From NCBI GenBank assembly GCA_031082005.1, contig JAVHLR010000001.1:16870-80869 (forward strand): DNA of 64,000 nucleotides. Direction: 5' to 3'. The stretch comes from Patescibacteria group bacterium. Lineage in GTDB: Bacteria; Patescibacteriota; Patescibacteriia; 2-12-FULL-60-25. Under the pieces are notes generated by a model that saw only the letters and a program-made list of their open reading frames with translations, ran no database searches and was not told the DNA's origin. Shown here in pieces: positions 4,581 through 60,666 of this stretch. The position numbers and the translations under genes were made by a program. Within the stretch, counting starts at the first letter, position 1; each line of letters starts with the position of its first letter.

Positions 4581-4582
4581 AG

Positions 4583-23183: not shown

Positions 23184-23187
23184 ATGA

Positions 23188-24027: not shown

Positions 24028-24073
24028 GCTCGCACCATACTGTAACAATGTTCAGCTGTCCAGGGAGTCCGAG

Positions 24074-25666: not shown

Positions 25667-25867
25667 GTGACAAGTGACGAGATCCTCACACTAAAGGAGG
25701 TCGCCAAGCTCCTGAAGGTTGCCGAGAAGACCGTGTACACCATGGCCCAGAACAAGGAACTCCCGGCGTTCAAGGTCCGCGGGCAGTGGCGGTTCCGCCG
25801 CGAGGACATGGACCGGTGGATCGAGGAGCAGAAGGCTCAGGCCGCCGAGGAGGGCTCGGATGAGTAA
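25667..25867 (+). CDS. Helix-turn-helix protein, first gene of the MADS-like operon
   Basis: The start is GTG 25667, with GGGAG upstream, giving 66 residues. It is almost entirely an excisionase/MerR-like helix-turn-helix: ILTLKEVAKLLKVAEKTVYT, a wing with FKVRGQWRFRREDMDRW, and a charged tail. It overlaps the first methyltransferase gene by 8 bp. As the first gene of a seven-gene overlapping operon it is probably a regulator. A gene of this kind heads the methylation-associated defence system (MADS) as I recall it. Confidence 0.75.
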   Translation: MTSDEILTLKEVAKLLKVAEKTVYTMAQNKELPAFKVRGQWRFRREDMDRWIEEQKAQAAEEGSDE

Positions 25868-27962
25868 GCGGAAGACGGCGACCAATCGCCGCAAGCGCGA
25901 TGAAGAGGTGGAGCAGGTCGCTGAGGAAGGCGCCAATGGCGACCTCGGCGCGCTCGATGACGAGGCACAGGGCGACGACGCCGAGGTCGTGCGCGACGGC
26001 TTCGTGCTCGACTTCATCTCGGGCACCAAGGAGCTGAAGGAGACCCCAAAGGAGCTCGTGCGGCAGCGGATCGCCCGGGCGCTGTTCCACGAGTACGGAA
26101 TCTCGGTCAACGACATGGAGGGCGACTCCCCAGTGTCGGTCGGCGGCCGGCGCCGCCGGGTGGACATCGCCATCTTCGCGGCTGGCAAGCCCCACGCCAC
26201 TGAGTACCTACGCCGGGTCGTGGTCTGCCGCCCCGAGCCTAAGCAGAACAAGCGGGGCGTGGTCAAGATGCGCGACTATGACCAAGCCGCCAAGGACATC
26301 GAGGAGATCAAGCCGTTCTTCGAGGAGTGTGAGGAGTGCGAGTACGGGCTGTGGACCAACGGCCTCGAGTTCTTCTTCGTCCAGAAGAAGAAGTCGAAGT
26401 TCCAGGTCGATGCGGAACCGATTGGCGACTGGCCCATGGGCGACGAGTCAGTAGGCACGCGCGACGTCGTATCCCACGCGAAGTCGCGGCGCGCACAACC
26501 CGACATGCTGCGCACCGCCTTCCGACGCTGCCACAACTTCATCCACGGCAACGAGGGCATGCCCAAGGACGCTGCCTTCTGGCAGTTCCTGTACCTCATC
26601 TTCTGCAAGATGCACGACGAGGGAGCGCCACGTGGGCGCCGTCGCTTCTGGGCCGGGCCTCAGGAGCAGTTTACGGAGGCCGGGCGCAACGGAATTCAGC
26701 AACGCCTTCTGCCTCTCTTCGATGAGGTCAAGCAGGAGTACAAGTCGATCTTCCGGGAAAGTGATCAGATCAGCCTCTCACCGCGAGCACTCGCGTTCAT
26801 GGTTTCGGAGCTCTCAAAGTATGAGTTCACTCGCATCGATGTCGACGCAAAGGGGGCTGCGTACCAGGAGATCGTCGGCACAAACCTGCGCGGCGATCGC
26901 GGCCAATACTTCACGCCTCGAGGCGCAATCAAGCTGGTAACGCAGATCCTTGCCCCCAAGGAGAGCGAGCGAGTCCTCGACCCCGCATGCGGCACGGGAG
27001 GATTTCTCGTCGCCACTCTTGCCCACATGATGAACCGATTTCGCCAGGAGGCGAAGATCAACGTCGGGGCTGAGACATCCGAGGAGTTCGAGTCCCTGCA
27101 CGATCGACTGCGCGACTACGCTTCGAAGCAACTCTTCGGCTGCGACTTCGATCCATTCCTGATCCGCGCCAGCCAGATGAACATGGTCATGGCTGGCGAC
27201 GGCAAGGGGCACCTCTATAACATCAACTCGCTCGAGTTCCCCGAGGGCTACCTGCCCGGGGTCAAGCCCGCGAAGAAAGACATTCCATTCGGCTCGGTGG
27301 ACGTGGTGATGACCAACCCGCCCTTTGGATCAGGCATCCCCATCACCGACGAGAACATACTTCGCCATTTCCACCTGGCCGCCACATGGGAGCGAACCGA
27401 AGACGGCTCGTTCCGCGAGACCCCCAAGCGTCAGGGTAGCGTGGCGCCCGAAGTGCTGTTCATCGAGCGCTGTCTGGACTGGCTCAGGCCCGGGGGGCGC
27501 ATGGGCATCGTCCTCCCGGACGGCATCCTCGGCAACCCGGCTGCCGAGTACATCCGCTGGTGGATCCTGAAGCACGCCTGGGTGCTGGCCAGCGTGGACC
27601 TCCCGGTCGAGACCTTCATCGTCGAGGCCAACGTCAACATTCTCACCAGCCTTTTGTTTCTCAAGAAGAAGCCGCCCGAGGTCCTCAAGCGGGAGGGTAT
27701 GAGCGGAGCGGCGGACTACCCCGTGTTCATGGCAGTGGCCGAGAAGGTTGGCTTCGACCGCCGGGGCAACGTCTTGAACAAGCGATCGCCCGAGGGTGAG
27801 GAGCTGACCCGCGACACTGAAGAGATCGAGACCATCACGGTCGGAGGGCGCAAGGTGGCGCGGACCCTTCGCCGCAAGGAGAAAATCCTCGACAACGACC
27901 TGCCTGAGATCGCGGAGCGCTACCGCGCATTCAGGCGTCAGCACGCGGAGCCGGGGAAATGA
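25860..27962 (+). CDS. HsdM-like N6-adenine DNA methyltransferase with nuclease-like N-terminus (1)
   Basis: The 700-residue protein starts at ATG 25860. Residues about 55-190 resemble the N-terminal domain of type I restriction subunits (VDIAIF, then CRPEPK as a possible ExK, and LWTNGLEFFFVQ). An HsdM helical domain follows, then the methyltransferase core: QYFTPRGAIKLV, DPACGTGGFL (about 373-382, SAM binding) and TNPPFG (about 484-489, catalytic). The gamma-class order matches type I HsdM. It overlaps its neighbours by 8 and 4 bp. It should mark self DNA for the defence system, working with the HsdS-like protein. Confidence 0.85.
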   Translation: MSKRKTATNRRKRDEEVEQVAEEGANGDLGALDDEAQGDDAEVVRDGFVLDFISGTKELKETPKELVRQRIARALFHEYGISVNDMEGDSPVSVGGRRRRVDIAIFAAGKPHATEYLRRVVVCRPEPKQNKRGVVKMRDYDQAAKDIEEIKPFFEECEECEYGLWTNGLEFFFVQKKKSKFQVDAEPIGDWPMGDESVGTRDVVSHAKSRRAQPDMLRTAFRRCHNFIHGNEGMPKDAAFWQFLYLIFCKMHDEGAPRGRRRFWAGPQEQFTEAGRNGIQQRLLPLFDEVKQEYKSIFRESDQISLSPRALAFMVSELSKYEFTRIDVDAKGAAYQEIVGTNLRGDRGQYFTPRGAIKLVTQILAPKESERVLDPACGTGGFLVATLAHMMNRFRQEAKINVGAETSEEFESLHDRLRDYASKQLFGCDFDPFLIRASQMNMVMAGDGKGHLYNINSLEFPEGYLPGVKPAKKDIPFGSVDVVMTNPPFGSGIPITDENILRHFHLAATWERTEDGSFRETPKRQGSVAPEVLFIERCLDWLRPGGRMGIVLPDGILGNPAAEYIRWWILKHAWVLASVDLPVETFIVEANVNILTSLLFLKKKPPEVLKREGMSGAADYPVFMAVAEKVGFDRRGNVLNKRSPEGEELTRDTEEIETITVGGRKVARTLRRKEKILDNDLPEIAERYRAFRRQHAEPGK

Positions 27963-29974
27963 GCGAAGAGCTTGAAGACCAGGTCGAGGACGGGACCGAC
28001 GAGGAGTCTGGCGGCGCGGACTCGCTCATTGACATCCTGACCGGCGAACCGATCGCGTCGTCCGCCAAAAACCGCCTCGTGCAAAAGGTGCTGCGGCAGC
28101 TCATCGAGAGCTACGGCTTCGACCGGAAGGACCTCAAGGTGGGCTACCGGCTCACCTCGAAGGGCAAGCGGCAGCAGTCGGTCGATATCGCCATCCTGCG
28201 CCACGATACCGAGATCTGCGACGAAAACATCGAGCGCATCGTGGTCTGCGAAAACCAGAAGGCGCGTGAAAAGCTCCGCAGCGCCCACGAGGCCGCGGCC
28301 GACCTGCGCAATCTGCACAAGAAGCTCGAGCTCTTCTCGTCGTGCCACCTCGGGATGTGGACCAATGGCCAAGAGGAGTTCTTCGTCCGCGTTCAGGACA
28401 CGACCTTCGAGACGAGGTTCCTGAACATCGGCGCATGGCCGGCGCCCGGCGAGCGCACCGACGATGTCCTGCGTGCGGGCGGCGCCACCCAGGTGGCCGC
28501 AGATCCCGAGGATCTCGAGGCTGCCCTCGGACGTTGTCACCAATACCTGACCAAGAACCTCATGCTAGGCGGCGATGCGTTCAAGCCCTTCGGCGCGCTG
28601 CTCATCTCCAAGCTCTACGACGAGACGCGGCCAGCGGGGCAGCGGCAATTCTGGATCCGCGGCGACGAGCCCTTCACCGCCGAGGGGCAAGCCGCCATCC
28701 GCAAGCGTGTGGCTTCGTGCTTCGAAGCCGTGCATGTCTGGCAGCCCGACGTGCTGAAGCACGGGTGGGACATCGATCACCTCGACGCTACGCAGACCAG
28801 CCGCCTGGTGATGGAGCTGGCCCGCTACTCCCTCGCCGACAGTCTTCCACGGAGCCGGACGATCGCCTACCGCTCGGCGGTGCGTTCGACCATGGACGGC
28901 AAGGATGGCCGCTATCCCACGCCGCTCAACGTCGCCGAGATGGCCGTGCGGATGCTCGACCCCGGGCCCGACGATCGCGTGTTCGACGGGTCGTGCGGCA
29001 CTGGGACCTTCCTGGGCATGGTCGCCGCTCACGTCTTCGAGTCCTTCCTCTCCAGCGCGGGCGCCGCACCTCACACGGCGACGGCGCAGCAGCTCAAGGA
29101 GGCTCAAGGCAAGACGGCCATGTGGGCGCGCGAGCACGTGTTCGGCTGCGATATGGCTCCCTCCCTCGTCGTAGCGGCGCGGTTGAACGTGCTGCTCACC
29201 GCGGGCCATCCGGGCAACATCTTTCGCATCGACGCCCGGACCTTCCCGGACGGCGAACTCGAGGATCAGGAGCGCGCGACGCGGATGCTGCCCGAGGGGA
29301 GCATGGACATCGTGCTCACCAACCCCTGGTTCAGCACCAAGGATACCGTCGCCGACGAGGCGATCCTCCGGCGCTATGACCTCGGCGAGAACTGGAACCG
29401 GACTGACGAGGGCACCTTCGTCAGCACCGGGACCCCGAAGTCCGGCGGCGTGCCGCCCGAGGTCATCTTCCTCGAGCGCGCCTGGCGCTGGGCCAAGCCG
29501 GGCACCGGCCGCATAGCCATCCTGCTCCCCGACGGTCTGCTGGGCAATCCGGGCGACGAGTACGTGCGCGCATGGATCCTGCGCCACTGCGAGGTGCTCG
29601 CGAGCGTCGACCTTCCGGTGGATCCGTTCAAGGTAACGCTAAAGGACTACCGCCTAACGCCGGCGTTGCCCAGCCTCCTGGTGCTTCGCCGCCGGAGCGA
29701 TGAGGAGCTCAAGCTCACCTTGCACCCCGACTACTGGGTCTTCATGGCCGTCGTGAACCGCGCCGGGGTTGGCGCACGCGGCAACAAGATCTTCGAGCGC
29801 GCGCCGGACGGCGAGGAGCTTGTGTTCAACGACGAGGTCGTCGAGCGCGTGCGGGTGGGTGGGAAGGTGGAGTCGCGGTTCGTGGCTCGCCGCCAGCGGC
29901 ACATCGATGACGAGCTGCCGATCGTTGCGGAGCACTACCGGAAGTTCGTTGCGGAGGGGAGGAAGGGACGATGA
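27959..29974 (+). CDS. HsdM-like N6-adenine DNA methyltransferase with nuclease-like N-terminus (2)
   Basis: The 671-residue protein starts at ATG 27959, overlapping by 4 bp. It parallels the first methyltransferase: N-terminal VDIAIL...CENQK region and LGMWTNGQEEFFVR, then YPTPLNVAEMAV, FDGSCGTGTF (about 342-351) and TNPWFSTKD (about 453-461). The catalytic tetrapeptide is NPWF rather than NPPF, which gamma-class enzymes tolerate. The two proteins are probably distant duplicates that form a heterodimer, each partner supplying one HsdM to a single HsdS. Confidence 0.83.
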   Translation: MSEELEDQVEDGTDEESGGADSLIDILTGEPIASSAKNRLVQKVLRQLIESYGFDRKDLKVGYRLTSKGKRQQSVDIAILRHDTEICDENIERIVVCENQKAREKLRSAHEAAADLRNLHKKLELFSSCHLGMWTNGQEEFFVRVQDTTFETRFLNIGAWPAPGERTDDVLRAGGATQVAADPEDLEAALGRCHQYLTKNLMLGGDAFKPFGALLISKLYDETRPAGQRQFWIRGDEPFTAEGQAAIRKRVASCFEAVHVWQPDVLKHGWDIDHLDATQTSRLVMELARYSLADSLPRSRTIAYRSAVRSTMDGKDGRYPTPLNVAEMAVRMLDPGPDDRVFDGSCGTGTFLGMVAAHVFESFLSSAGAAPHTATAQQLKEAQGKTAMWAREHVFGCDMAPSLVVAARLNVLLTAGHPGNIFRIDARTFPDGELEDQERATRMLPEGSMDIVLTNPWFSTKDTVADEAILRRYDLGENWNRTDEGTFVSTGTPKSGGVPPEVIFLERAWRWAKPGTGRIAILLPDGLLGNPGDEYVRAWILRHCEVLASVDLPVDPFKVTLKDYRLTPALPSLLVLRRRSDEELKLTLHPDYWVFMAVVNRAGVGARGNKIFERAPDGEELVFNDEVVERVRVGGKVESRFVARRQRHIDDELPIVAEHYRKFVAEGRKGR

Positions 29975-31395
29975 AAGAGAAACTCGTCCCCAGCGCGTGG
30001 CTGGAGAAGGAAGGTCGGCGCCTTGACTGCGGACCATATGTGTCTGGAGCCATCGAGGCACGGGTTCTCCTCGGACAACTCCCAGTGAAGAAGACCCCGC
30101 TTCAGGCCCTTACAGCAGGCCACGACGGCGGCATCTACAACGGACCACAATTCGTGCGCAGGTACGTTGATGGCGAGCAGCATGGTGTTCGGTTTCTCAC
30201 GAGTAGTTCGATGCTCCTTGCCGATCTCAGACTCGCCGATCTGCTAAAAAGAAGCGACGCACATTCCTCGCGACTCGCCCATCTGCGTCTGTCGCCATCA
30301 ATGATCCTAATTTCCTGTTCGGGAACTATCGGTCGCATGTCGTTTGCGCGTGCCGACATGGACGGCATGTGGTCGTCGCAGGACATCCTCAAGATCGTCG
30401 CGGCACCGAAGCGGGTGAAACCGGGGTTCCTGTACGCGTATCTGTCCAGCCGTTTCGGCGTGCCGCTCGTAACGGGTGGCACGTACGGTGCGATCATTCA
30501 GCACCTGGAGCCACAACACATTGCAGACCTCCCAGTCCCCGAAGCCCCCGCTGATATCCAAGACAAGGCTCACGCGCTTGTCGTGAGGGCGGCCGACGCG
30601 AGGACGACTGCAATCGGCCTAATCATTGCCGCCGAGAAGCGCGTAGCTGAAGCATGGGGCCTTGGGCCTCAATCGGCCGATCCAGCGCGCAAGGCAGGAG
30701 GTCCAGACATACTTCTCACTCAGGCGTCAGCGCTCGCGGGTCGGTTCGACGCTCACTTCCATTCCAGCCCTGCCCGTGCGGCAGATGAAGCGCTGGGACG
30801 TCTCGCGCACAGCATTGAGGTGAAGCGACTAGGAGATGTCGTTGAGTCCGTCTTCGAGACGCCTCGCTTTGGACGGATTCCTGTTGAGGACCCCAAATAC
30901 GGCGTACCGTTCATGTCGATTTCGGACCTTGCCCGAATCGATCCGATTCCATCTGGTCTCATCAGCAAACGGCAAGCGGTAGCGATGAAAGCCATCGTTG
31001 AGGACGGGTGGCTCATTCTTCCTCGCGTCGGTCAGCTACAGGGATTGTTTGGGCATGTGGTTGCGGTTCCCCCGCATCTCAGAGGACTCGGGGTGAGCGA
31101 CAACAACATCCGGGTGGTTCCGCGGTCAAAGCCCGACAGCGGATACCTATTCGCTGCGCTGTCGACGAAGATTAGCTACTGGCAGATCGTGCGACGGGCT
31201 TGCGGAACTTCGATCCCGTATCTTGATGCCGCCAGAGTTTCCGATGTCCCCGTGCCATGGGTGGGCAGTGACGAACGAGCCAAGATCGGCGCCTTGGTGA
31301 ATGAAGCGATGGCTCTTCGTTCGCGTGCGCGCCATGACGAGCGCGAAGCTGTCGTCCTGGTAGAGCGCTGGATCGAAGGGATGGGAGGTGCCTGA
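29971..31395 (+). CDS. hsdS: HsdS-like DNA specificity subunit
   Basis: The 474-residue protein starts at ATG 29971 with a 4-bp overlap. It has two target-recognition-like halves: SCSGTIGRMSFARADMDG...SSQDILKIVA and later DGWLILPRVGQLQGLFGHVV...VSDNNIRVVP. Each ends with a conserved-region-like helix segment (PAPADIQDKAHALV-like at about 190; ERAKIGALVNEAMAL near the C-terminus). HsdS subunits choose the bipartite target sequence of type I enzymes. No HsdR with a helicase is present, so cleavage would depend on other proteins of this operon. Confidence 0.8.
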   Translation: MKEKLVPSAWLEKEGRRLDCGPYVSGAIEARVLLGQLPVKKTPLQALTAGHDGGIYNGPQFVRRYVDGEQHGVRFLTSSSMLLADLRLADLLKRSDAHSSRLAHLRLSPSMILISCSGTIGRMSFARADMDGMWSSQDILKIVAAPKRVKPGFLYAYLSSRFGVPLVTGGTYGAIIQHLEPQHIADLPVPEAPADIQDKAHALVVRAADARTTAIGLIIAAEKRVAEAWGLGPQSADPARKAGGPDILLTQASALAGRFDAHFHSSPARAADEALGRLAHSIEVKRLGDVVESVFETPRFGRIPVEDPKYGVPFMSISDLARIDPIPSGLISKRQAVAMKAIVEDGWLILPRVGQLQGLFGHVVAVPPHLRGLGVSDNNIRVVPRSKPDSGYLFAALSTKISYWQIVRRACGTSIPYLDAARVSDVPVPWVGSDERAKIGALVNEAMALRSRARHDEREAVVLVERWIEGMGGA

Positions 31396-34300
31396 TGGCC
31401 AAGGTCATCGCCATCGGTCAGCCTGCCAACGACTCGGAGCGCGAGGCCATCGCCTACCTGCGCGACAACCTCTCTAACGCCTTCACGGTCATCCACAACT
31501 TCGAGCTGAAGCAGGGCCACGAGCTGTACGAGATCGACGTCGCCCTGCTGTGCCCGCAGTGCGTGTTCGTCATCGACGTGAAGGGAACGCGTGGGCTCGT
31601 CGACGTCTACGGCAGCAAGTGGTACCCGGAGGGCCGCGCACCCTACCACTCGCCGCTCGCCATCCTGCGCAACCACGCCAAGGCGCTCAAGACTCTGATC
31701 CGCGATCAGTACCCGGCGAACACGGCGATGGGCGGCGTATGGATCGACGCGGCGGTGTTGATGACCGCACCCGATGCACTCGTGCAGGACCCCGGAGGTC
31801 AGGACGGTCCCTCGGTCGCGTATCTCAAGAAGTGCACCGCCTTCTTCCAGGACAAGGGGCGAGTGCGCCCTGGCTGCTCGACGGAGATCCGTGCCCGGCT
31901 CGGGCAGATCGAGAAGGCCATCGTCGGCCGCGCCAAACCCAAGAGTGCCCCTCCCTGCTACGGCAACTGGCAGGTCGACGAGAAGCTCGGCGGCACCGAC
32001 CGCTACACCGAGTACCGCGCCAAGCACACGCTCCTCGGGGCCAAGCGCGGTGGCACCGCGCGGCTGCGCGTGTACCAGGTGGATCCGTACCTGCCCGAGG
32101 AGCAGCGCAAACGGGAACACCGCCGCATCGGAAACGCCTTCCGAGCCGTGGCCTCGATGCCCGGGCACCCGAACATTCTGACGGTCCGCGACCTCATTCC
32201 CACCGAGGCCGAGGACCGACTCGTGCTCGTGACCGGCGATGTGGCGGGCCACGCCCTGCGCCAGCACATCAAGAAGAGCGCTCTGGCGCTCACGTTCGAC
32301 CAGAAGATCGCCGTGATCCGGGACGTGCTGGCGGCCCTCGACCACGCTCACCGCAGCGACCCGCAGGTCGTCCACCGCAACCTGAACCCAGACGCTGTGC
32401 TCATCAGCACCGCTGGCCGCGCCTTGATCTGTGGCTTCGACTACGCCCGCGCTGGCAAGGACCGGACGAGCACCATCGCCCAGGACATCGTCGACGAGCT
32501 CGACCCGATGTACCAGGCACCCGAGTGCTACAAGGATCCGTCGAAGGCGAGCGTGGCCTCCGACCTCTATTCGGCGGGCCTCGTGTTCTACGAGCTGCTG
32601 GTGGGCGAGCAGCCGTGGTCCTCCATCGACGACATGATGGAGAAGGATGGCGTGTTCCCGGTGAAGCCGTCCGAGCAGAAGCCGGAGCTGCCCGCGGATC
32701 TGGACGGCTGGCTCCAGGCGCTCTGTTCGTTCGACGTGGAGGACCGCCCTTCATCCTCTGCGGTGGCGCTTGCCAGGTTCAACGATATCGTCGGCCCCGA
32801 CCCAAGGGAAGCCGGCAAGCAAAAGCCGCGCGAGAGCCTGCCGCCCGCCGCCGCGCGGCCCGACGTCGACTACCGGGCCCTCAAACGCGGCGACGAGGTC
32901 GCCAACCGCTTCCGGGTCGAGGACAAGCTGGGCGACGGCGGCTTCGCGTCTGTGTACCGGGTCTTCGACTCCTTCGCGGACACGACCCGCGTCCTCAAGA
33001 TCATCGTCAAGGACCGGCGTTCGACCTTCCAGCGCCTCAAGCAGGAGTATTGCGTCCTCGAGAAGCTCAAGCCCCACCCGAATGTGGTTCGCGTGGTCTG
33101 GGCGGACAAGCTTCCCGACGAAACCCCCTTCCTCGTCTTCGAGTACATCGCCGGCACCGGCATCGACGACCTGCTCACGAGCGGCTCCGTTTCCCTCGAG
33201 GACGTCAGGCGCATCGGCCTCGACACCCTGACAGGGCTCGAGTACCTCCACGCGAGCGGCGTCTTTCACCGCGACATCAAGCCGTCGAACCTGCTCTGGA
33301 CCGACCAGGGTGTGCGCATCATCGACTTCAACGTCGCGGTGCACCAGGACGACGAGGAGGCCCGGGCCGGCGGCACGCGACGGTACATCCCCCCGGACCT
33401 CGAGCTGTCCGATTCGCTGACGTTCGAGGAGAAGGTCGACTGGGACCTCTACTCGCTTGGCATCACGCTCTACGAGTGTGCCACCGGCTGGAAGTACCCG
33501 TGGGCCGAGGCGATGCCGCCAATGAAGGTCCTTCCCAAAGACCCGCGGGACTACATCTCCGATCTGAGCCCGGAGATCGTGCAGGTCATCCTCCGCGCGA
33601 TCGCTCCGAGCCGGGCTGACCGTTTCGCCTCGGCGACCGAGTTCCGGGAGGCACTGTCGATGGTGGCCAAGGTTCGGGTCACGCCTTCGGCACCCGTGGT
33701 CACGATCACGCCGAAGCCGGAGGCTGGAGCGTTGGCGCTCTTCCAGCCCCACAAGCCCAACTTCAACCCCTTCGTCACGCACCTGCTCACCATGTACAGC
33801 CAGAGCCCGACGACCAACGCGGGCACGCGCGGGCTGGATGATGTTGGGCGCGAGACGTACATCCGCACCTTGCTCGACGACAAGCTGCGGCCAGCCGTGC
33901 TCGCCGGCGAGTTCCGCCTGGTCGCTGTCACGGGCAACGCGGGCGACGGAAAGACCGCGTTCATCAACCGGATCGAGGACGCCACCGAGGTGAAGCCCAG
34001 CCTCGTCCGGAAGACCAACGGCTCGGAGTTCACCCTGCGAGGCCGGCGCTTCATCACCAACTACGACGGCAGCCAGGACGAGGACACCAAGGCCAACGAC
34101 GTGGTGCTCCAGGACTTCCTGGGGCCGTACGCGGGCGCGGACTCAAGCGCCTGGCCCACTGACGAGACGCGGATCATCGCGATCAACGAGGGGCGCCTCG
34201 TCGATTTCCTGACGGAGCACGAGGACCAGTACCCCCATCTGCGGGCTCTGGTCATGGCTGGGCTCGCCGGCGCCCCGGCCTCCGACGGGGTCGTCGCGGT

Positions 34301-35537
34301 GAACCTCAACCTGCGCGCTATCGTAGCCGACCCACCGGGTTCGCCCGGGCCCGACACGATCTTCGACCGGCTCCTGCTTCGCCTCGTGAACGACAAGTTC
34401 TGGGAGCCCTGCGCGAGCTGCGACATCCGCGACCGATGCTACGTGTTCCACAACGCCCGGACCTTCATGGACCCGGTGGCTGGACCCAAGGTCACCGAGC
34501 GGCTGCGTCGGCTCTACGCGATCACGCACCTGCGGGGGCGGCTGCACATCACCATGCGGGATCTGCGCTCGGCCCTGGCTTTCACCCTCGCGGGTACGCG
34601 GGACTGCGACGACATCCACGCTCTGTACGCCAGCACGAGCGCGGAAGCCCGCCACCAGATCCTGCAGGGGTTCTACTTCAACGCCTGGCGCGGCGGCACC
34701 AGCACGGCGGATCGGCTCCTGTCGTTGCTCGGCGAGATCGACATGGGAGAGGCGTCGAACCCGGACATCGACCGTGCTCTCGACTACCTGCCACCCGACG
34801 CCGGCGAGTTGGCGCGGTTCACTTTGGCGTCCCGCGCCGACTTCGACAATCAGCTCCTCGACCGCATGTACCGGGAGCTGCCCAGGGACGCCTCGGCTGG
34901 CTCTGCCGGTCGGCGCATGGCGGATCACCGCGAGTACGTGGCCATGTTGCGGCGGCGCCAGTTCTTCGAGCGCCGCGACGAGAACTGGAAGGAGATGCTG
35001 CCCTACCGTACGGCGAGCACCTTCTGGCGTCTGGTCACAGGCGAGACGCAGCCCGGCATCCATCTCGACGAGGTCCTGACGGCGATCAACCACGGCGAGG
35101 GCTTGAGCAACCCGAAGCGGCTCGGCAACTGCCTCGCCCTGCGGGTCCGCGTGGTCGAGCGTGGCACGGTGCGTAGCTACCGGCTGTTCCCAGGTGAGTG
35201 CTTCAGCCTCGATCTTCCTCCCGGCGCCAGCAACGAGTTCGTCGAGCACATCCCGCAGACGCTGCGGCTCGTCTACACAGCGCCCTCCGGTCAACAGGCC
35301 GAGCTCCTCGTGGACCTCGACATCTACGAAATGCTGGCCCGTCTGAACGACGGCTATCGGCCGAGCCTCGAGGAGCTGCAGGGCTACTACTTGACGCTGA
35401 CGGTCTTCAAGAACGTCCTGTCTTCTGCCCCCTACCAGGAGGTCCTGCTCAGCCGGACAGGCCACGACTTCTATCGCATCCGGCGTGAGTCGGAGGGCAC
35501 GCTCCACCTGGAAGCGCTGCCGGGAGGGGCGAGCTGA
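31395..35537 (+). CDS. NERD nuclease domain, pseudokinase, Ser/Thr kinase and P-loop ATPase fusion
   Basis: This 1380-residue protein overlaps its neighbours by 1 bp on each side. Order: NERD domain (1-110; LYEIDVALL and FVIDVKG); kinase fold 1 (about 180-470) with HRNLNP (327) and CGFDYAR in place of HRDLKP and DFG, so probably inactive; kinase fold 2 (about 500-760) with GDGGFASVY, HRDIKPSN (about 625) and IIDFNVAV, likely active; then a P-loop domain with GNAGDGKT (about 845) and a Cys cluster (CASCDIRDRC). A kinase follows the methyltransferases and HsdS in MADS and in Pgl/BREX type 2 (PglW). It probably signals infection by phosphorylating partners. Confidence 0.83.
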   Translation: MAKVIAIGQPANDSEREAIAYLRDNLSNAFTVIHNFELKQGHELYEIDVALLCPQCVFVIDVKGTRGLVDVYGSKWYPEGRAPYHSPLAILRNHAKALKTLIRDQYPANTAMGGVWIDAAVLMTAPDALVQDPGGQDGPSVAYLKKCTAFFQDKGRVRPGCSTEIRARLGQIEKAIVGRAKPKSAPPCYGNWQVDEKLGGTDRYTEYRAKHTLLGAKRGGTARLRVYQVDPYLPEEQRKREHRRIGNAFRAVASMPGHPNILTVRDLIPTEAEDRLVLVTGDVAGHALRQHIKKSALALTFDQKIAVIRDVLAALDHAHRSDPQVVHRNLNPDAVLISTAGRALICGFDYARAGKDRTSTIAQDIVDELDPMYQAPECYKDPSKASVASDLYSAGLVFYELLVGEQPWSSIDDMMEKDGVFPVKPSEQKPELPADLDGWLQALCSFDVEDRPSSSAVALARFNDIVGPDPREAGKQKPRESLPPAAARPDVDYRALKRGDEVANRFRVEDKLGDGGFASVYRVFDSFADTTRVLKIIVKDRRSTFQRLKQEYCVLEKLKPHPNVVRVVWADKLPDETPFLVFEYIAGTGIDDLLTSGSVSLEDVRRIGLDTLTGLEYLHASGVFHRDIKPSNLLWTDQGVRIIDFNVAVHQDDEEARAGGTRRYIPPDLELSDSLTFEEKVDWDLYSLGITLYECATGWKYPWAEAMPPMKVLPKDPRDYISDLSPEIVQVILRAIAPSRADRFASATEFREALSMVAKVRVTPSAPVVTITPKPEAGALALFQPHKPNFNPFVTHLLTMYSQSPTTNAGTRGLDDVGRETYIRTLLDDKLRPAVLAGEFRLVAVTGNAGDGKTAFINRIEDATEVKPSLVRKTNGSEFTLRGRRFITNYDGSQDEDTKANDVVLQDFLGPYAGADSSAWPTDETRIIAINEGRLVDFLTEHEDQYPHLRALVMAGLAGAPASDGVVAVNLNLRAIVADPPGSPGPDTIFDRLLLRLVNDKFWEPCASCDIRDRCYVFHNARTFMDPVAGPKVTERLRRLYAITHLRGRLHITMRDLRSALAFTLAGTRDCDDIHALYASTSAEARHQILQGFYFNAWRGGTSTADRLLSLLGEIDMGEASNPDIDRALDYLPPDAGELARFTLASRADFDNQLLDRMYRELPRDASAGSAGRRMADHREYVAMLRRRQFFERRDENWKEMLPYRTASTFWRLVTGETQPGIHLDEVLTAINHGEGLSNPKRLGNCLALRVRVVERGTVRSYRLFPGECFSLDLPPGASNEFVEHIPQTLRLVYTAPSGQQAELLVDLDIYEMLARLNDGYRPSLEELQGYYLTLTVFKNVLSSAPYQEVLLSRTGHDFYRIRRESEGTLHLEALPGGAS

Positions 35538-37201
35538 TGGCGATCAAGGGAAAAGACCGCGAGTTTCGACTCCGGCAGCTTTCGTACATCGACTTCAAGC
35601 CGGTGAACATGGACCGCGTGCTGACGATGCTGTTTCCCCGCCTGCGCTTCGGGGGCTACGGCACTCGGCGGCCGCCGCGCAAGAACGAGCTCACCGTCTC
35701 CGATTTCACCCGCGAGTACGTGAAGGATCCGAAGCAGTTTGCCGGATTCGCCGAGCATCAGAACCTCGTCGAACGGTGGATCGAGACCGACCTGATGGAC
35801 ATGGTCAATCGGGGACGGCCGAACCAGGCGCTCGCCGCGCCGAGGCCCCTGCATGGCAACACCTACAAGTTCCGGAACGCGCGACACGCGCGTGACTACG
35901 GCGCCGCCGAGCAGCTCTACTGGATGCTCTACTACGCCCGCGGCGGAAGAGGACAGGTAGCCCGCGAGGCGCTCACGCGGTTCTTCTTTCCCGGCGTCGA
36001 CCTGCACACCGACAAGTACGACCCGTCCGCTTCGGTGGATGTCGAGACCCAGGCGCTGCTCCACTTCGACCAGCAGGTATCGGTGGACATGCGCGACTCC
36101 CAGGAGCCGGAGCGCTTTCCTCCGCCCTGCGTCGGGCAAGTGGATCTCCTCGCGGACGACACACTCAGGCTTCTCGCCTACGAGCCGTACATCCCCCGGA
36201 CGGTCCTGGTCGAGTATCTGAAGACGCTGTTCGCCTTCCACCTTGGGCTCTACCACCTCCGGCTCATCAAGCTCCTGCCCGCCCTCGTGCGGCGACGGAG
36301 CACGGACCCGACCTGCGATTTCAAGAGCTGCCCCGTGGCGCCCGATCAGATGGAAGCGCACGGCGGGTGCCCGTATCGTGTCTATCTCCTGGCCGACCTT
36401 GGCAACGACCTCGACAGCCACATGGCCGCCCTGGCACGGCACAGCGCGGATGTGCACTACCGCCGCATTCCGACATACGTCCAGTCGCACTACCTGTTGC
36501 GCAAGCTCGATGAGCTCGCGGACTACCTGAGCCATCGCGTGGGCAAGCTGTCGGCGCCGGCCAACGGCTTCTTTGGGATCGGGGATCTGCTTGCCCTGCT
36601 CGAACCGCCACATGCCGCCGAGCGAGATGGCTACTTCAAGGCCAGGCTGGCGGGGCTGCTGGAGGACACTGGGGGCAACACCCGAGAGGAGATCGATCCC
36701 GAGATCAAGCGCGTCACCGAGATGGGCCTCGGCGATCTCGACATGTACGTCGAGATCTTGATGGCCCTCCGGGGTTCCTACCATCGGCGCTACATCACCG
36801 AGTTCCTCGACTCGGTGTTCAAGCGCGGCGACGCCGGCGTCATGCACCAGTCCAAGGCGAGCCCGCGAAGGTTCGCAGTGGGCAGCCAGCTGCTCGAGGT
36901 CCTCCTCCAGATCGCAGTCCTGCGTTCGTCCGGCTCCGGCTTCTACACGCGTGCCCTGCGTATCGACGAGCTGCTCGTCTTCCTGCGCGAGCGCTACGGC
37001 ATCTACATCGATCGACTGCCGCCCGGAGATGGCTTCGGCGCCGCGAGCATCAAGGACCTGGCGGCGCTCCGGCAGAACGTCCAGAGCTTCCGCGGCCGCC
37101 TGCGGGAGATCGGCTTCTTCCGAGATCTGTCAGATGCGTACATCACGCAGACGGTCATGCCTCGCTACACGATCGAGAAGACCAACGGAGGTGCGCCATG
37201 A
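35537..37201 (+). CDS. Unknown protein of the MADS-like operon
   Basis: The 554-residue protein overlaps the kinase gene by 1 bp and the next gene by 4 bp, so it is an integral part of the operon. It is largely helical, with FDFKSC-type Cys residues near 260 (CDFKSCPVAPDQMEAHGGC, a possible zinc site) and a conserved-looking block YVQSHYLLRKLDELADYLSH. The C-terminal domain (RIDELLVFLRERYGIYIDRL, then a helix pair) resembles a winged helix. I recognise no catalytic motif. By position it matches the unknown gene between kinase and ATPase in MADS-type loci. Confidence 0.75.
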   Translation: MAIKGKDREFRLRQLSYIDFKPVNMDRVLTMLFPRLRFGGYGTRRPPRKNELTVSDFTREYVKDPKQFAGFAEHQNLVERWIETDLMDMVNRGRPNQALAAPRPLHGNTYKFRNARHARDYGAAEQLYWMLYYARGGRGQVAREALTRFFFPGVDLHTDKYDPSASVDVETQALLHFDQQVSVDMRDSQEPERFPPPCVGQVDLLADDTLRLLAYEPYIPRTVLVEYLKTLFAFHLGLYHLRLIKLLPALVRRRSTDPTCDFKSCPVAPDQMEAHGGCPYRVYLLADLGNDLDSHMAALARHSADVHYRRIPTYVQSHYLLRKLDELADYLSHRVGKLSAPANGFFGIGDLLALLEPPHAAERDGYFKARLAGLLEDTGGNTREEIDPEIKRVTEMGLGDLDMYVEILMALRGSYHRRYITEFLDSVFKRGDAGVMHQSKASPRRFAVGSQLLEVLLQIAVLRSSGSGFYTRALRIDELLVFLRERYGIYIDRLPPGDGFGAASIKDLAALRQNVQSFRGRLREIGFFRDLSDAYITQTVMPRYTIEKTNGGAP

Positions 37202-40200
37202 GCAACGGGTTTCGGGCACTGCCCTCCGTCGACCTGACTCGCGCGGTCGAACAATTGCTTCTTCCGCGGCTCGCCGCAGCCTTGCGCGAGCGCGGTGCCG
37301 GACACTGCATGCGGGTGCCGGACTTGGATCGCGAGCTGATGCTGTCGCTGGCCAAGGGGCTCCGGGCCGAGGTTCCGGAAGCCCAAGTCTTCGTTCTGGC
37401 CAACGGTTCGCCTGCGCCTGACGGCGACCTGCTGATCTCGTCGACCAAGCTGGTCGAACTTCGCAATCCGCTCCCGAACGGATCGCTGCGCCCGCCGCTG
37501 TGCGTGTTCTTGCCCGCCAACCTGAGAACGAGCGCCGAGGATTCGTTCGGCGTCGCCACGTTCCAGGAGTTCCCGGTAGGTGACTCCTACGAGTCCCTGC
37601 GGGGTCAGTTGCTCGAGCGGGTGCCAGCCTCTTTGCTGGGCTACGTCCGAGATGCCCTCCATCTCCTTCGAGAGCAGCGCTGGCGCTGGGCCAGCGACGT
37701 GGCCCAGGTGCGCTACCTGCTCTGTGCCCACGCGAACGGCAACGACGGCGAGGCATTTGGCGGCTCGCTGTACGAGCTGGGCCTTGTCCCGGACTTCAAG
37801 CTCTTCGACGATCCGACGACGGCATACGGGCGGGTCCGCAAGAATCTCGAGTGCGTCAGACGGCTAACCGATGGCGACGCCTCAGTGCGTGCGCGCGTGC
37901 TCGGGCTCGATCTGGTGAACAAGGGGCTGCGCCGCAGGCTGGCCGAGTACCTCGTGGACGCAGGCGTCGAAGACCCGGTGGCGTGGACCCGAGACATCGT
38001 CCTCCACCGCCGCAAGTGGGATCTGTCTTTCGACAAGTGGGAGTTCGCCTCCGAGATCTCGCCCGACAAGATCTCGTTTTTGAAGGTCGAGACGGATCTG
38101 CCGGTCATCGCTGACGACGAGACGGACGAGCGCCTTCTGGACCTCGTCGGCCAACAGGTGCTCGCGCCGCAGGAGCGGCGCAAGTTCAACGTCGTGGTCG
38201 AGGTCTCGCCGCATCCTGGGCAGGTTCAGGGGCTCGATCACTTCACCGTGCAGATCATCTCCAAAGACACCGGCCCAGTGGGGGTGGTCCGGAAGGTGCC
38301 TGTTTGGAAGACGAACCGCACGACCTGCAACGTGTCCTTCTCGAAGCTCAACAAGGTCGAGTTCGAGGAGGGCTGGTACAACGTGCGCGTACTGCCCTGG
38401 ACGGCTGGCGGCGATCCGATCCCCATCGACGAGCCGGCCGGCTCGCTCGCCAAGCGCTCGAACGAAAGCGAGCCCTTCTACGTGCTGCCCGAGATCGAAC
38501 TCGAGGAGGAGCCACCTCAGCGCGCGGTACCAAAGGCCGAGAGCGTGGAGCACGCACGCATCGACCGGCAATTCACGGCGATTCTGCAGGGACGCGAGCC
38601 ACAAGACGTTGCGCTGGATAGCGTGGGTTGGGCCCAGAAGAACACCCAGCGCCGCTCCACCTCTCACGAGACCATCGAGGCGAAGTTCGGCAAGGAGGGG
38701 GCCTTCCAGATTGCCGTCGCGAGGTGGCTCAAGATCGTCGAGGAACGGATCCTCACGAGCCCCGAACGCCCGGTGAGCTGGCGGATGCAGCTCCACATGG
38801 GTCAACCGCAGACGCCGACCGGCGACATTAGCGAATGGCCGGCGTCGGCAGCCGTGCGGAGCTTTCTCGATGCGCGTACGGGGTACTTCGCCGCGGTCAC
38901 CCAGAACAAGGGCCTCGTCACCCAGGGGCTCGACTTCCTGGCAGCGGAAGAGAGTGTCCTCGCCTACGCGTCCGCCTACATCGACCTGCTGAAGGACCTC
39001 TCGGCCAAAGTGGAGCGCGAGTCAGGCAGCGATCAGCTCAAGGCCATCGTTGCTCTCCGTGCCGCCCTGGCGGTGGACACCATTCGTCTGGTCATCGAGG
39101 ACTACCGCGGTCACGTTCGCGAAGCTGCGGTGATCGCGCCCACGCATCCCTTGCGGGTCCTGTGGCAACTCGGATGGGCGCAGCTCGGCGCGGCCTGGGT
39201 CAAGGCAACCACGAAGGGGCCGGAGGAGCACGTGACCCCGGCGCGCGACGCTCTTCTGCGTGGCATCTCCTCCGTGAACTTCCCGCCGATGCTTCCAATC
39301 AGCGATGGTCGCGTGTTCGTCGCGGTCGACAACATTCATCCCTTCTGGTCGCTCTACGCGCCCGCGACCGAGGAAGATCCCCGCGGGCTCCTCGGCGATG
39401 TCTGTGCGGCGCTCGGGCTTCCTGAGCCGTCCATCGGCGGGCTTGCGGTCACCGGTGAAGTTATCGCGTCCAGGATCGAGCGCTACCTCGTCCAGCACCC
39501 GTATGTCCGGACTCTTGCGATCAACGCGTTTAACCCAGGGCGCGCGACAGTGCTCGCCGACGCCCTCGTGGCCCTGCAGAAGCAGGAGCCGTTCAAGGAC
39601 CTTCGCTACGACCTACGCCTGTTCGTGCCCGACCCCGATGCCCTAGGGGTCGGTGAGTCAATCGCGGCGCTACTGGCAGGGGAAGGAACGCTGGCCGGCG
39701 AGGCATTCTCAGTTCCGACGGGCAGCCACGTCTTCCCGAAGCTCAACGTCGCGGTCCGCGGCACTGCCGATTTTCGCGAAACCCCCTCTCGCTATCGGTC
39801 CCACCTGAGCTTCCTCTTCGACGTCTTCCCGGCCGAGGAGGTCGGCGCCGGAAAACCCTTCCGGCTCGAGCGTACGATACCTCTGCACGGGCTCGTCCAG
39901 GACTTCACGGTGCGATACCGGGACGACGAGACGGGTACAGGATGGCAGCGCCAGCCCCGCCACGGGGCCGCGACGATGATCGCGGGTGCCGAAGAGACGA
40001 GCATGCTCCTCGGGCAGCTCCCCGCACTGCTCTCCGCGGCCGCTGCGACCGTTGCTCGATCGACTCCCGATTTCGAGTCGCGACCGATCATCCGCCTTGA
40101 GCTCGATCCGGACGAGCGCGCATTGATCAGTGAGATCCACGACGCCAGCGACTGGGTCTTCACCATCGACCGCAACATGGGGATCGAATTCTTCGACCAC

Positions 40201-42693
40201 GGCGGGCGCCACGATCGTCCGGACTACCTCATCGACTACACGCCCTCCGGAGTTCCCGAGCACGGCCACCGCCTCGTGATCAGCTCGAGGTCGCTCGCCG
40301 AGCTCGAGGCCATCCTGCGACCGGTGCTGCAGCAGTACGGGCTGGACGCCGAGGGTCGCCAGGCTGTCCTCATCCTGGAGCAGCTCCGCTCTCTGTCGGG
40401 CCGCTTGGCACTGAAGCTGGTCTCCTCTCCCACGGCACGCGCGGAAGCGCTGGGCATGGCTTTGGCTCGCCTCTACCTGGAGTACCAGGGCGCGCTTCGC
40501 GATCAGATCGTGGTGCCGCTCGACGCTCACCTCGAGCTGTTTCACACCGCCAAGAAGCATGCGGAGGCAATCGGCGACGAGGTGACTCTGCGCCGGACCG
40601 ACCTGGCCCTGTTCGACCTCGACGTGGCCCGTCGAACCATCACCTGCAATCTGGTGGAGGTGAAATGCTACGCCCAGAAGCTCGGGCTCAGTGGCTACGG
40701 CCAGGTGAAGGAGAACATCACCGAGCAGATCAACCAGAGCGAGCGCATCCTCCAGAAGCACTTTGACCCGCATCGGACCACGCCTGATCGTCCCGACCGC
40801 CTGCTGAAGACGCGTGAGCTGGCCACGCTCCTCGAGTTCTACCTCGACCGGGGTCTGCGCTACCGCATCATGGACCCCGCGGCCGGCGAGGAGGCCAGGA
40901 CCTTCCTCGACGTCCTCGAGGCCGGGTACACCCTGCGCTTCACGCGAAGCGGGCTGGTGTTCGACTTCGACAAGCCCGGAACCGAGCCGCCCGAACACGA
41001 GGTCGGTATCGAGTTCCACCGCATCGGCAAGGATCTCATCCACGCCCTGGTGGAGCGCCCGGCTCCGGCGCCGTCTTCGGATGAGGACGGCGATGGAGGG
41101 GCCGGCGAGGAACCCGCTGCTTCCGTGGCGCCGAGCAGTGCCCCGATTCCGATGCTCAACTCGGCTGCGTTCCTGGTCGAAGAGCGGCAGCGGGTTATCT
41201 CGGTTGACCTCAGTTGGAACGGGGAGCATCGCCCTGGTGCAGACAAGCCAGCCGCGCATGAACCGGACGACACGCCTGCCTCTGCTCCCGGCGATACGCC
41301 GGTCAACGACGGAGACACTTCCGCCGGCATTTCAAGTCCAGCGGTTGCTGCACCCGTAGCCGAGGAACAGGAGGTCCCGGCACATAAGCCTGCATCGACG
41401 GAGGCCCCCAAGAAGCCTAAGCCCCCACGCGAAGGTGAAACCAGGGAGGCCACTATCACGTCACGAGAGCCTGAAGCGCCAGCCTCGTGTCTGCCATGCG
41501 ACGTGGTTATCGGTGTCAACGCACCGTCCCCGCAGCTCGGCGTGCTTGGCGAGGTGGTGGGCCGCAAGATCGCGCTGGACCTCAACCAGACGCACACCAT
41601 CAGCCTGTTCGGCGTGCAAGGGGGCGGCAAGAGTTACACCCTGGGCAGCGTCGTCGAGATGGCCTGCATGCCGATCCCCGGGGTGAACGTGCTGCCCCAC
41701 CCGCTGGCCGGCGTCATCTTCCACTACAGCGCGACGCTCGACTACAAGCCCGAGTTCACTTCGATGATCTCGCCGAACACGGGTGCCTCCGAGGTCGCCA
41801 CGTTGCGGGAACGCTACGGCGCTGAACCTCGTGCTTTGGAGGACGTGGTCATCCTCGCGCCGGCTGCCAAGGTCTCGGAGCGCAGCGCCGAGTACCCGGG
41901 CATCCAGGTGTTGCCCATCGCCTTCGCCGCCTCGGAGCTGAAAGCGGCGCACTGGAAGTTCCTCATGGGGGCGGTCGGCAGCCAGAGCATGTACATCCGG
42001 CAGCTCGGCCTGATCATGAAGAAGCTCCGCGGCGAGCTCACGCTCGACGGGCTTCGCCAGGAGGTCGAGCACTCAGGTCTGTCGGACTACTTGAAGGAGC
42101 TCGCGCTCCTGCGGCTGCGTTTCGCCGCTGAGTACATTGATGACAACCACCGCCTGACGAACGTACTGCGGCCCGGCCGCCTGGTAATCGTAGACCTCAG
42201 AGACGAGCTGGTGGAGAAGGACGAAGCGCTCGGTCTCTTCGTCGTGCTCCTGCAGATGTTCTCCGAGACCACCTTCGAGGGGCGCTCCTTCAACAAGCTC
42301 GTCGTCTTCGACGAGGCCCACAAGTACATCGACAACCCCGACCTCGTCGCCGGGCTCGTCGAGGTCGTCCGCGAGATGCGCCACAAGGGCACGAGCATCA
42401 TGGTCGCCTCGCAGGATCCCCCCTCGGTGCCGACGTCGCTGATCGAGCTGTCGACGCAGATCATCATGCACAAGTTCAACTCCCCCGCGTGGCTGAAGCA
42501 CGTACAGAAGGCGAACGCCGCCCTCGACGAGCTCACGCCGGCAAAGCTCGCCGCGCTCGGCCCAGGCGAGGCGTACGTCTGGAGCAGCAAATCAACCGAC
42601 GACGCCTTCACCAGGGGCGCGGTCAAGGTGCGGTGCCGGCCCAGAGTCACGCTGCATGGCGGCGGAACTAAGACTGCCGTCGAGGAAAAATGA
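37198..42693 (+). CDS. Large HerA/FtsK-type ATPase with embedded PD-(D/E)XK-like domain
   Basis: The 1831-residue protein ends the operon. Its N-terminal 1100 residues are unassigned and include EYLVDAGVEDPVAWTRDIVL and a beta-rich region. At about 1135-1165 is a nuclease-like pattern (RRTDLALFDLD then LVEVKCYAQ: Asp, then Glu-x-Lys). A low-complexity Pro/Ala/Glu linker (about 1340-1430) leads to a HerA-like motor with GVQGGGKS (about 1472, Walker A), VFDEAHKYID (about 1703, Walker B) and IMVASQDPPSVPTSLIELS. A DNA translocase with a nuclease domain would be the attacking part of the system (inference). Confidence 0.82.
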   Translation: MSNGFRALPSVDLTRAVEQLLLPRLAAALRERGAGHCMRVPDLDRELMLSLAKGLRAEVPEAQVFVLANGSPAPDGDLLISSTKLVELRNPLPNGSLRPPLCVFLPANLRTSAEDSFGVATFQEFPVGDSYESLRGQLLERVPASLLGYVRDALHLLREQRWRWASDVAQVRYLLCAHANGNDGEAFGGSLYELGLVPDFKLFDDPTTAYGRVRKNLECVRRLTDGDASVRARVLGLDLVNKGLRRRLAEYLVDAGVEDPVAWTRDIVLHRRKWDLSFDKWEFASEISPDKISFLKVETDLPVIADDETDERLLDLVGQQVLAPQERRKFNVVVEVSPHPGQVQGLDHFTVQIISKDTGPVGVVRKVPVWKTNRTTCNVSFSKLNKVEFEEGWYNVRVLPWTAGGDPIPIDEPAGSLAKRSNESEPFYVLPEIELEEEPPQRAVPKAESVEHARIDRQFTAILQGREPQDVALDSVGWAQKNTQRRSTSHETIEAKFGKEGAFQIAVARWLKIVEERILTSPERPVSWRMQLHMGQPQTPTGDISEWPASAAVRSFLDARTGYFAAVTQNKGLVTQGLDFLAAEESVLAYASAYIDLLKDLSAKVERESGSDQLKAIVALRAALAVDTIRLVIEDYRGHVREAAVIAPTHPLRVLWQLGWAQLGAAWVKATTKGPEEHVTPARDALLRGISSVNFPPMLPISDGRVFVAVDNIHPFWSLYAPATEEDPRGLLGDVCAALGLPEPSIGGLAVTGEVIASRIERYLVQHPYVRTLAINAFNPGRATVLADALVALQKQEPFKDLRYDLRLFVPDPDALGVGESIAALLAGEGTLAGEAFSVPTGSHVFPKLNVAVRGTADFRETPSRYRSHLSFLFDVFPAEEVGAGKPFRLERTIPLHGLVQDFTVRYRDDETGTGWQRQPRHGAATMIAGAEETSMLLGQLPALLSAAAATVARSTPDFESRPIIRLELDPDERALISEIHDASDWVFTIDRNMGIEFFDHGGRHDRPDYLIDYTPSGVPEHGHRLVISSRSLAELEAILRPVLQQYGLDAEGRQAVLILEQLRSLSGRLALKLVSSPTARAEALGMALARLYLEYQGALRDQIVVPLDAHLELFHTAKKHAEAIGDEVTLRRTDLALFDLDVARRTITCNLVEVKCYAQKLGLSGYGQVKENITEQINQSERILQKHFDPHRTTPDRPDRLLKTRELATLLEFYLDRGLRYRIMDPAAGEEARTFLDVLEAGYTLRFTRSGLVFDFDKPGTEPPEHEVGIEFHRIGKDLIHALVERPAPAPSSDEDGDGGAGEEPAASVAPSSAPIPMLNSAAFLVEERQRVISVDLSWNGEHRPGADKPAAHEPDDTPASAPGDTPVNDGDTSAGISSPAVAAPVAEEQEVPAHKPASTEAPKKPKPPREGETREATITSREPEAPASCLPCDVVIGVNAPSPQLGVLGEVVGRKIALDLNQTHTISLFGVQGGGKSYTLGSVVEMACMPIPGVNVLPHPLAGVIFHYSATLDYKPEFTSMISPNTGASEVATLRERYGAEPRALEDVVILAPAAKVSERSAEYPGIQVLPIAFAASELKAAHWKFLMGAVGSQSMYIRQLGLIMKKLRGELTLDGLRQEVEHSGLSDYLKELALLRLRFAAEYIDDNHRLTNVLRPGRLVIVDLRDELVEKDEALGLFVVLLQMFSETTFEGRSFNKLVVFDEAHKYIDNPDLVAGLVEVVREMRHKGTSIMVASQDPPSVPTSLIELSTQIIMHKFNSPAWLKHVQKANAALDELTPAKLAALGPGEAYVWSSKSTDDAFTRGAVKVRCRPRVTLHGGGTKTAVEEK

Positions 42694-60396: not shown

Positions 60397-60666
60397 ATGA
60401 CCGAACCAACAACAACGCAGTTGAGGGAGAACGAGAACCACGCAACCTTCGCGCTTCCTTCCGACCTCATCACGGCAGCCGAGGTGGCCACCAGGCTCGG
60501 CGTCGCGAAGAGTGCAGTGTACGAGTGGATCGCGCGACGGGACATCGCCTACCACCGCGTGGGCCGTCTCATCCGCATCCGCGAAACTGACGTCGCCGCG
60601 TTTTTGAATCGTAACCGCGTGGAGTACAATCCGCGCCGCCGCCATGTCCGCTATCCGGAGGCGTGA
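60397..60666 (+). CDS. Excisionase-type helix-turn-helix protein (module 2)
   Basis: The 89-residue protein starts at ATG 60397. The helix-turn-helix (LITAAEVATRLGVAKSAVYE) and wing (HRVGRLIRIRETDVAAFL) match module 1 at 19379-19678. Its end overlaps the integrase start by 23 bp. It should steer the integrase toward excision. Confidence 0.82.
   Translation: MTEPTTTQLRENENHATFALPSDLITAAEVATRLGVAKSAVYEWIARRDIAYHRVGRLIRIRETDVAAFLNRNRVEYNPRRRHVRYPEA

What the first reader, a model, noticed from the sequence alone, without database searches (positions are those of the whole stretch)
25667..42693. Seven-gene overlapping MADS-like operon with nuclease-like domains on both methyltransferases
HTH, two HsdM-like methyltransferases, HsdS, NERD-pseudokinase-kinase-ATPase, an unknown protein and a 1831-residue HerA ATPase overlap by 1-8 bp. 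This matches the methylation-associated defence system in order as I recall it. Both methyltransferases also begin with a type I restriction R-subunit-like domain, and no helicase HsdR is present, so restriction must come from these domains, NERD or the ATPase's own nuclease-like part.
Basis: partly seen in the sequence, partly recalled or inferred. Interest (0 to 1): 0.7.

Follow-up and report, generated by a model that had tools for sequence, protein, structure and literature searches.

The report
Two-methyltransferase variant of MADS phage defence
A seven-gene bacterial anti-virus operon of the known MADS kind, in a form with a second, altered DNA methyltransferase, sits on a mobile genomic island in a tiny-genome bacterium, and its last three genes resemble a known DNA-damaging module, which suggests how MADS may attack foreign DNA.

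Summary
The operon is real (25667-42693; overlaps of 1-8 bp). It is MADS: all seven proteins hit NCBIfam MADS models, six above cut-off, the second methyltransferase at 716 of 720 bits. It is not the eight-gene form. A Piscinibacter plasmid with a curated MAD3 hit has one methyltransferase plus an ATPase (mad3) and a small protein (mad4); here a second, divergent methyltransferase ("MtB") stands in their place, with NPWF instead of NPPF in 28 of 28 rows. The type-I-R-like domains exist but look nuclease-dead: Cys where Glu is expected in 27 of 27 Mad2 and 28 of 28 MtB rows. Intact nuclease motifs are in Mad6 (NERD) and Mad8. The Mad6 C-terminus, Mad7 and Mad8 match SspF/DndF, SspG and DndH models (12/12, 12/12, 9/9 relatives scanned), so restriction most likely comes from an SspFGH/DndFGH-like module acting on unmethylated DNA. 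The operon is cargo of a 74-kb, ~63% GC island in tRNA-His, bounded by a perfect 27-bp repeat, in a 1.3-Mb genome that fits Patescibacteria (inferred). Its nearest relative is a Myxococcota MAG with a swapped specificity gene.

The parts
25667..25867 (+). mad1, small helix-turn-helix protein
   Evidence: NCBIfam MAD1 91.6 bits, cut-off 80
25860..27962 (+). mad2, N6-adenine methyltransferase with N-terminal HSDR_N-like domain (about 26046-26402), motif NPPF
   Evidence: NCBIfam MAD2 987 bits; HSDR_N_2 and N6_Mtase; NPPF 27 of 27 rows
27959..29974 (+). MtB, second divergent methyltransferase with HSDR_N-like domain (about 28082-28420); NPWF at 29321-29332
   Evidence: MAD2 model 716.4 bits, cut-off 720; NPWF 28 of 28 rows
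29971..31395 (+). mad5, HsdS-like specificity subunit
   Evidence: NCBIfam MAD5 451 bits, cut-off 400
31395..35537 (+). mad6: NERD, pseudokinase (HRN), Ser/Thr kinase, C-terminal SspF/DndF-like ATPase (33792-35537)
   Evidence: NCBIfam MAD6 752 bits; Pfam NERD and kinase; SspF 1.3e-24; motifs
35537..37201 (+). mad7, SspG-like protein
   Evidence: NCBIfam MAD7 625 bits; PADLOC SspG 1.9e-7
37198..42693 (+). mad8, DndH-like protein with PD-(D/E)XK-type motif (about 40600-40665) and C-terminal HerA-like ATPase (Walker A about 41611-41640)
   Evidence: NCBIfam MAD8 217 bits; PADLOC mad8 and DndH; motifs 22 of 22
60644..61729 (+). tyrosine integrase next to the attachment site (island, not operon)
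   Evidence: Pfam Phage_integrase 2e-29
61864..61937 (-). tRNA-His, integration target; its 3' end 61864-61890 is the 27-bp direct repeat at the right end of the island (the other copy lies left of the window)
   Evidence: ARAGORN; perfect 27-bp repeat

Best explanation
The operon is a two-methyltransferase variant of MADS, carried as cargo on an integrated island. Mad2, MtB and Mad5 form a type-I-like M1-M2-S methyltransferase that marks host DNA at a sequence read by Mad5 (inferred from homology). Mad2 keeps the NPPF motif; MtB has a conserved altered pocket (NPWF) and probably makes the mark asymmetric, by modifying the other strand differently or not at all (inferred). The Mad6 C-terminal ATPase, Mad7 and Mad8 are homologous to SspF/DndF, SspG and DndH (shown by profile matches); by analogy with SspFGH they damage DNA that lacks the mark, with Mad8 as the likely nuclease and translocase (inferred). 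NERD and kinase parts of Mad6 probably gate or assist this step (inferred). The R-subunit-like domains of Mad2 and MtB are probably structural or DNA-binding remnants.
For: MADS models for all seven proteins. F-G-H homology in the same gene order, repeated in 12/12, 12/12 and 9/9 relatives scanned. Mad8 D1135, E1154, K1156 and Walker motifs 22 of 22; NERD D48, D61, K63 27 of 27, both also seen in three divergent plasmid operons. R-like domain: expected Glu is Cys in 27/27 and 28/28. SspFGH damages unmodified DNA and is toxic without the modification (PMC8092258, passages). A two-M precedent exists in PacII M1M2S (PMC9613975, passages). mad5 is the most variable gene (31-50%) and is swapped against L015.
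Against: No activity was measured. SspG and DndH matches cover only part of the proteins (Mad7 406-534, Mad8 868-1077). The window's own Mad2 has a Glu and a Lys (E126, K128) just after the third strand, so a shifted ExK cannot be excluded for this copy, although the Lys is kept in only 6 of 27. MtB keeps Asn, first Pro and Phe of motif IV and may be a normal methyltransferase. NERD is as well conserved as the Mad8 motif. [quoted passage not shown]
Confidence: 0.6

Rival explanations
1. The NERD domain of Mad6 is the restriction nuclease, switched by the kinase, and Mad8 mainly moves along DNA.
For: NERD D48, D61, K63 conserved 27 of 27, and an (D/E)xK also in three divergent plasmid operons; Bacteroidota plasmid L117 has a PP2C phosphatase gene after mad8, in line with phospho-control.
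Against: Mad8 has its own intact motif and matches DndH models; NERD is shared with PglW-type proteins and may serve another role.
Confidence: 0.25
2. The R-subunit-like domains of Mad2 and MtB cut DNA.
For: HSDR_N_2 matches in both; best structural match of the Mad2 model is BsaXI, a nuclease-methyltransferase fusion; E126 in 26 of 27 and K128 in the window's own copy.
Against: Cys at the expected Glu in 27/27 Mad2 and 28/28 MtB; K128 in only 6 of 27.
Confidence: 0.07
3. Exclusion without cutting, as proposed for BREX: the ATPase and kinase block phage DNA replication.
For: Mad6 resembles PglW over residues 14-706; a review lists MADS restriction as unknown (PMC12904381, passages).
Against: Two intact nuclease motifs; F-G-H module homology.
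Confidence: 0.12
4. The high-GC island is an assembly chimera and not part of this small genome.
For: About 63% GC against 51-55% in sampled chromosome stretches; nearest operon in a Myxococcota MAG; MAD7 in no other genome sampled from the phylum.
Against: Perfect 27-bp repeat exactly at both GC borders; both flanks match the tRNA-His/tRNA-Arg locus of a same-genus genome that has the identical 27 bp and no island; 1.24-Mb contig.
Confidence: 0.05

Closest known systems
MADS, eight-gene form (example: Piscinibacter gummiphilus plasmid NZ_CP136338; Maestri et al. 2024 recalled, not read)
   Same: mad1, mad2, mad5, mad6, mad7, mad8 in the same order
   Different: mad3 (AAA ATPase, 547 bits) and mad4 are absent here; a second methyltransferase stands in their place
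SspFGH / DndFGH phosphorothioate restriction modules
   Same: F-, G- and H-like proteins in the same order
   Different: fused to NERD-kinase and paired with methyltransferases and HsdS, not with sulphur-modification genes
Non-canonical type I M1M2S methyltransferases (PacII; PMC9613975)
   Same: two different M subunits and one S; PacII chains among the structural matches of the Mad2 model
   Different: NPWF instead of NPPY in the second M; N-terminal R-like domain; no helicase-type R subunit
BREX type 2 (PglW)
   Same: NERD-kinase layout, 246 bits over residues 14-706
   Different: far below the cut-off of 990; no PglZ-like protein in the operon

Membership tests
MADS | MAD1, MAD2, MAD5, MAD6, MAD7, MAD8 equivalogs | tested here: met
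   all over their NCBIfam cut-offs
MADS | mad3 (AAA ATPase) of the eight-gene form | tested here: not met
   NF047739 0 of 1 own genome; Piscinibacter mad3 not found in window or in 30 loci
MADS | mad4 of the eight-gene form | tested here: not met
   tblastn of Piscinibacter mad4: no significant hit in the window (best E 0.17) nor in 30 loci
MADS | DNA methylation and phage protection | not testable with these tools
   no methylation or phage data
Type I restriction-modification | HsdM and HsdS plus helicase-type HsdR | tested here: not met
   M- and S-like found, no helicase domain among the seven proteins
BREX type 2 | PglW equivalog | tested here: not met
   246 bits, cut-off 990
SspFGH/DndFGH-like restriction module | F-, G-, H-like proteins in order | tested here: met
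   profile matches; homology only, partial for G and H
SspFGH/DndFGH systems proper | adjacent phosphorothioate-modification genes | tested here: not met
   operon holds methyltransferases and HsdS instead

The most novel reading that the evidence does not exclude
MADS is a methylation-guided member of the SspFGH/DndFGH restriction group, and this widespread subtype writes an asymmetric mark with an NPPF/NPWF methyltransferase pair; it moves as a unit, with specificity-gene swapping, even into a streamlined small-genome bacterium on an integrative island.
Probability: 0.4. Interest if true: 0.75.

Novelty: new variant of a known kind. Interest (0 to 1): 0.55.

Why it matters
A February 2026 review lists the restriction mechanism of MADS as unknown (PMC12904381, passages read). 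The F-G-H homology and the list of intact versus lost nuclease motifs turn this into direct mutational tests. The conserved NPPF/NPWF pair in place of mad3-mad4 defines a subtype whose mark can be predicted and measured. The island documents transfer of a whole multi-gene defence system into a genome of a lineage with small genomes.

Tried and rejected
AlphaFold of Mad7 gave pLDDT 55 and was not searched. No solved structure matched Mad7 or the Mad6 C-terminus by sequence. PHROGs added nothing decisive. BREX type 2 and plain type I were rejected by cut-offs and missing parts. I first took the second methyltransferase for a published mad gene; the Piscinibacter operon showed otherwise. Accessory genes between mad2 and mad5 in some loci (Fic, an HExxH protein, a PDC-M24B-like protein with a small neighbour, an IS-like transposase) were considered as mad3/mad4 and rejected. 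NF047739 rings in 26 of 27 genomes behind MtB loci but in none over its cut-off, so these are other ATPases. Contig C5 (63% GC) has no match to the island or its flanks. Rows dropped: L042 from the MtB count, because its row was its Mad2; its broken MtB also reads NPWF. L040 and L043 fell below the coverage limit for the MtB set. L093 (excluded) and L104 (outside the range I took) are not in the Mad8 set. The founding MADS paper is not held; what I remember of it was not used as evidence.

Full report
Observation. The seven genes lie at 25667-42693 on the + strand with overlaps of 8, 4, 4, 1, 1 and 4 bp. All proteins hit NCBIfam MADS models: MAD1 91.6 bits (cut-off 80), MAD2 987 (720), second methyltransferase 716.4 on the same MAD2 model (720), MAD5 451 (400), MAD6 752 (460), MAD7 625 (410), MAD8 217 (175). 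BREX PglW is far below its cut-off (246 of 990). PADLOC agrees for mad1, mad2, mad5, mad6, mad7 and mad8.

Variant. MAD3 (NF047739) has no match in the genome. A plasmid of Piscinibacter gummiphilus, found with Mad7 and so not chosen by the second methyltransferase, holds mad1, one MAD2 (1015 bits), an AAA ATPase that is MAD3 (547 bits, cut-off 420), a 215-aa protein, HsdS, kinase, mad7 and mad8. Two annotated Bacteroidota plasmids have one methyltransferase and no MAD3 over cut-off; their HsdS gene follows the methyltransferase directly, and one has a PP2C phosphatase gene after mad8. A third, unannotated one has a MAD2 match in two pieces. The window's Mad2 is 61% identical to the Piscinibacter enzyme and MtB 37%, so MtB is the added paralogue. 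A scan of genome contigs with MtB gave 30 loci; 21 of 30 show all seven genes in order and 9 a subset in order (some without a mad1 hit, others cut by contig or locus ends or interrupted). Piscinibacter mad3 and mad4 are not found in any of the 30 (tblastn, E 1e-3); L043 ends before mad5. Because these loci were found with MtB, the share of the two forms is not estimated.

Methyltransferases. Mad2 has NPPF in 27 of 27 rows and a standard motif I. MtB has NPWF in 28 of 28 and a changed motif I that keeps G-T-G. In PacII M1M2S, M1 has NPPF (m6A) and M2 NPPY (m4C); the Asn side chain and the first Pro main chain hold the target amino group, and the second Pro and the Tyr line the pocket (PMC9613975, passages). 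MtB keeps Asn, first Pro and Phe, so it may be an altered or an inactive enzyme; I cannot tell which. The Mad2 model (pLDDT 78) best matches BsaXI, a nuclease-methyltransferase fusion, then type I M subunits; the PacII chains are among the first 20.

Nuclease parts. In the R-like domain the Asp is kept (Mad2 D102 27/27, MtB D76 28/28), but where the Glu is expected, at the end of the third strand, there is Cys (27/27, 28/28). In Mad2 a Glu three residues on is kept in 26 of 27 and a Lys two further in 6 of 27, the window's own copy being one of the 6. The placing of the Glu rests on the strand order in the model and on recalled PD-(D/E)XK geometry. NERD D48, D61 and K63 are 27 of 27. Mad8 D1135, E1154 and K1156 are 22 of 22, with Walker-type motifs 22 of 22. 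The first kinase-like domain has HRN (27/27); the second has K535, D627, N632 and DFN (27/27). The Mad6 ATPase has GNAGDGKT (27/27) (all). The same types of motif are seen in NERD and Mad8 of three divergent plasmid operons.

Restriction module. The Mad6 C-terminus alone hits PADLOC SspF (1.3e-24) and DndF (1.1e-6). Mad7 hits SspG (1.9e-7) and Mad8 DndH (2.4e-7). Among relatives, 12 of 12 Mad6 C-termini hit SspF and DndF, 12 of 12 Mad7 hit SspG, 9 of 9 Mad8 hit DndH and 5 of 9 SspH, at E 0.001 (I gave 12 of 26, 12 of 25 and 9 of 21 available). The family counts are per family over 33 members, and I assign them to the protein by the models' own names. The order F-G-H is the same. SspFGH damages unmodified DNA and is harmful to cells without the modification (PMC8092258, passages). 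That paper finds no significant identity between SspFGH and DndFGH, while another review calls them homologues (PMC12707154, passages). A review lists MADS restriction as unknown (PMC12904381, passages). In the held library, the searches showed no paper describing this link; the founding paper is not held, so the link may be in print.

Island. The window is 59-67% GC up to about 62 kb, then 50%. Sampled chromosome stretches are 51-55%, three other contigs 48-52%, one small contig 63%. A perfect 27-bp direct repeat lies at contig positions 4348-4374 and 78733-78759; the latter is the 3' end of tRNA-His at window 61864-61937. A tyrosine integrase is next to it. In same-genus genome G408 the tRNA-His/tRNA-Arg locus has the identical 27 bp, homologues of left-flank DNA 3-6 kb away, and no match to the island in the 60 kb fetched; part of the left flank (contig 1-1740) maps beyond the tRNAs in inverted orientation, so the locus has also been rearranged. 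In G406 a left-flank homologue is also near these tRNAs. I read this as a 74.4-kb integrated element. The genome is 1.31 Mb, has a bacterial 16S gene and lacks ribosomal protein L30 (0 of 1; controls 13 of 14). The sampled phylum has over 300 genera and listed genomes of about 0.7-1.6 Mb. This fits Patescibacteria; it is an inference, since the tools name no taxon. MAD7 over cut-off occurs only in this genome among 379 of the phylum and 380 of the class (overlapping samples). Genomic islands and defence systems are reported for such bacteria (PMC12455944 and PMC12259885, passages), so an island as such is not unheard of.

Mobility of the operon. The nearest relative is a Myxococcota MAG contig (L015): 89-94% protein identity for mad2, MtB, mad6, mad7 and mad8, 74% for mad1, but 37% for mad5. 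Nothing else of the island matches that contig. In the Mad7 tree the window joins L015 (100/100) and then two Acidobacteriota rows (100/100). mad5 is the most variable gene across the set (31-50% identity to the window; the other genes mostly above 50%).

Verdict. A known kind of system in a distinct, widespread form, with a testable explanation of its restriction step that I did not find stated in what I could read.

Noticed in passing
22182-24961, minus strand: CBASS-like cluster just upstream of MADS: two CD-NTase (SMODS) genes with a 4TM-effector-like gene between them.
   Followed up: partly
43060-47170, plus strand: Phosphorylase-superfamily gene followed by an NB-ARC/TPR/SEC-C gene, directly after mad8; looks like another defence or NLR-like pair.
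   Followed up: partly
2098-8332, plus strand: ThiF (E1-like), JAB and a HerA-like ATPase gene that also hits the PADLOC mad8 model (4.3e-12); a possible further conflict system.
   Followed up: partly
9107-10486 and 56282-58785: Two replication-relaxation genes and a TraG/TrwB-like coupling protein, with further integrases at 19348-20814 and 47599-49011: the island may be composite and mobilisable.
   Followed up: no
49579-51129: STIG1-like protein (2.9e-25); recalled as common in Myxococcota, in line with a foreign origin of the island.
   Followed up: no
L031:8877-10004, L036:8379-9488, L039:8747-9871, L040:281-1402, L016:8690-9960: Different accessory genes (HExxH protein, Fic, PDC-M24B-like) sit between mad2 and MtB or between MtB and mad5 in some relatives: an insertion hotspot inside the operon.
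   Followed up: partly
L117:20109-20774: PP2C phosphatase gene directly after mad8 in a Bacteroides finegoldii plasmid MADS operon, hinting at phospho-control by Mad6.
   Followed up: no
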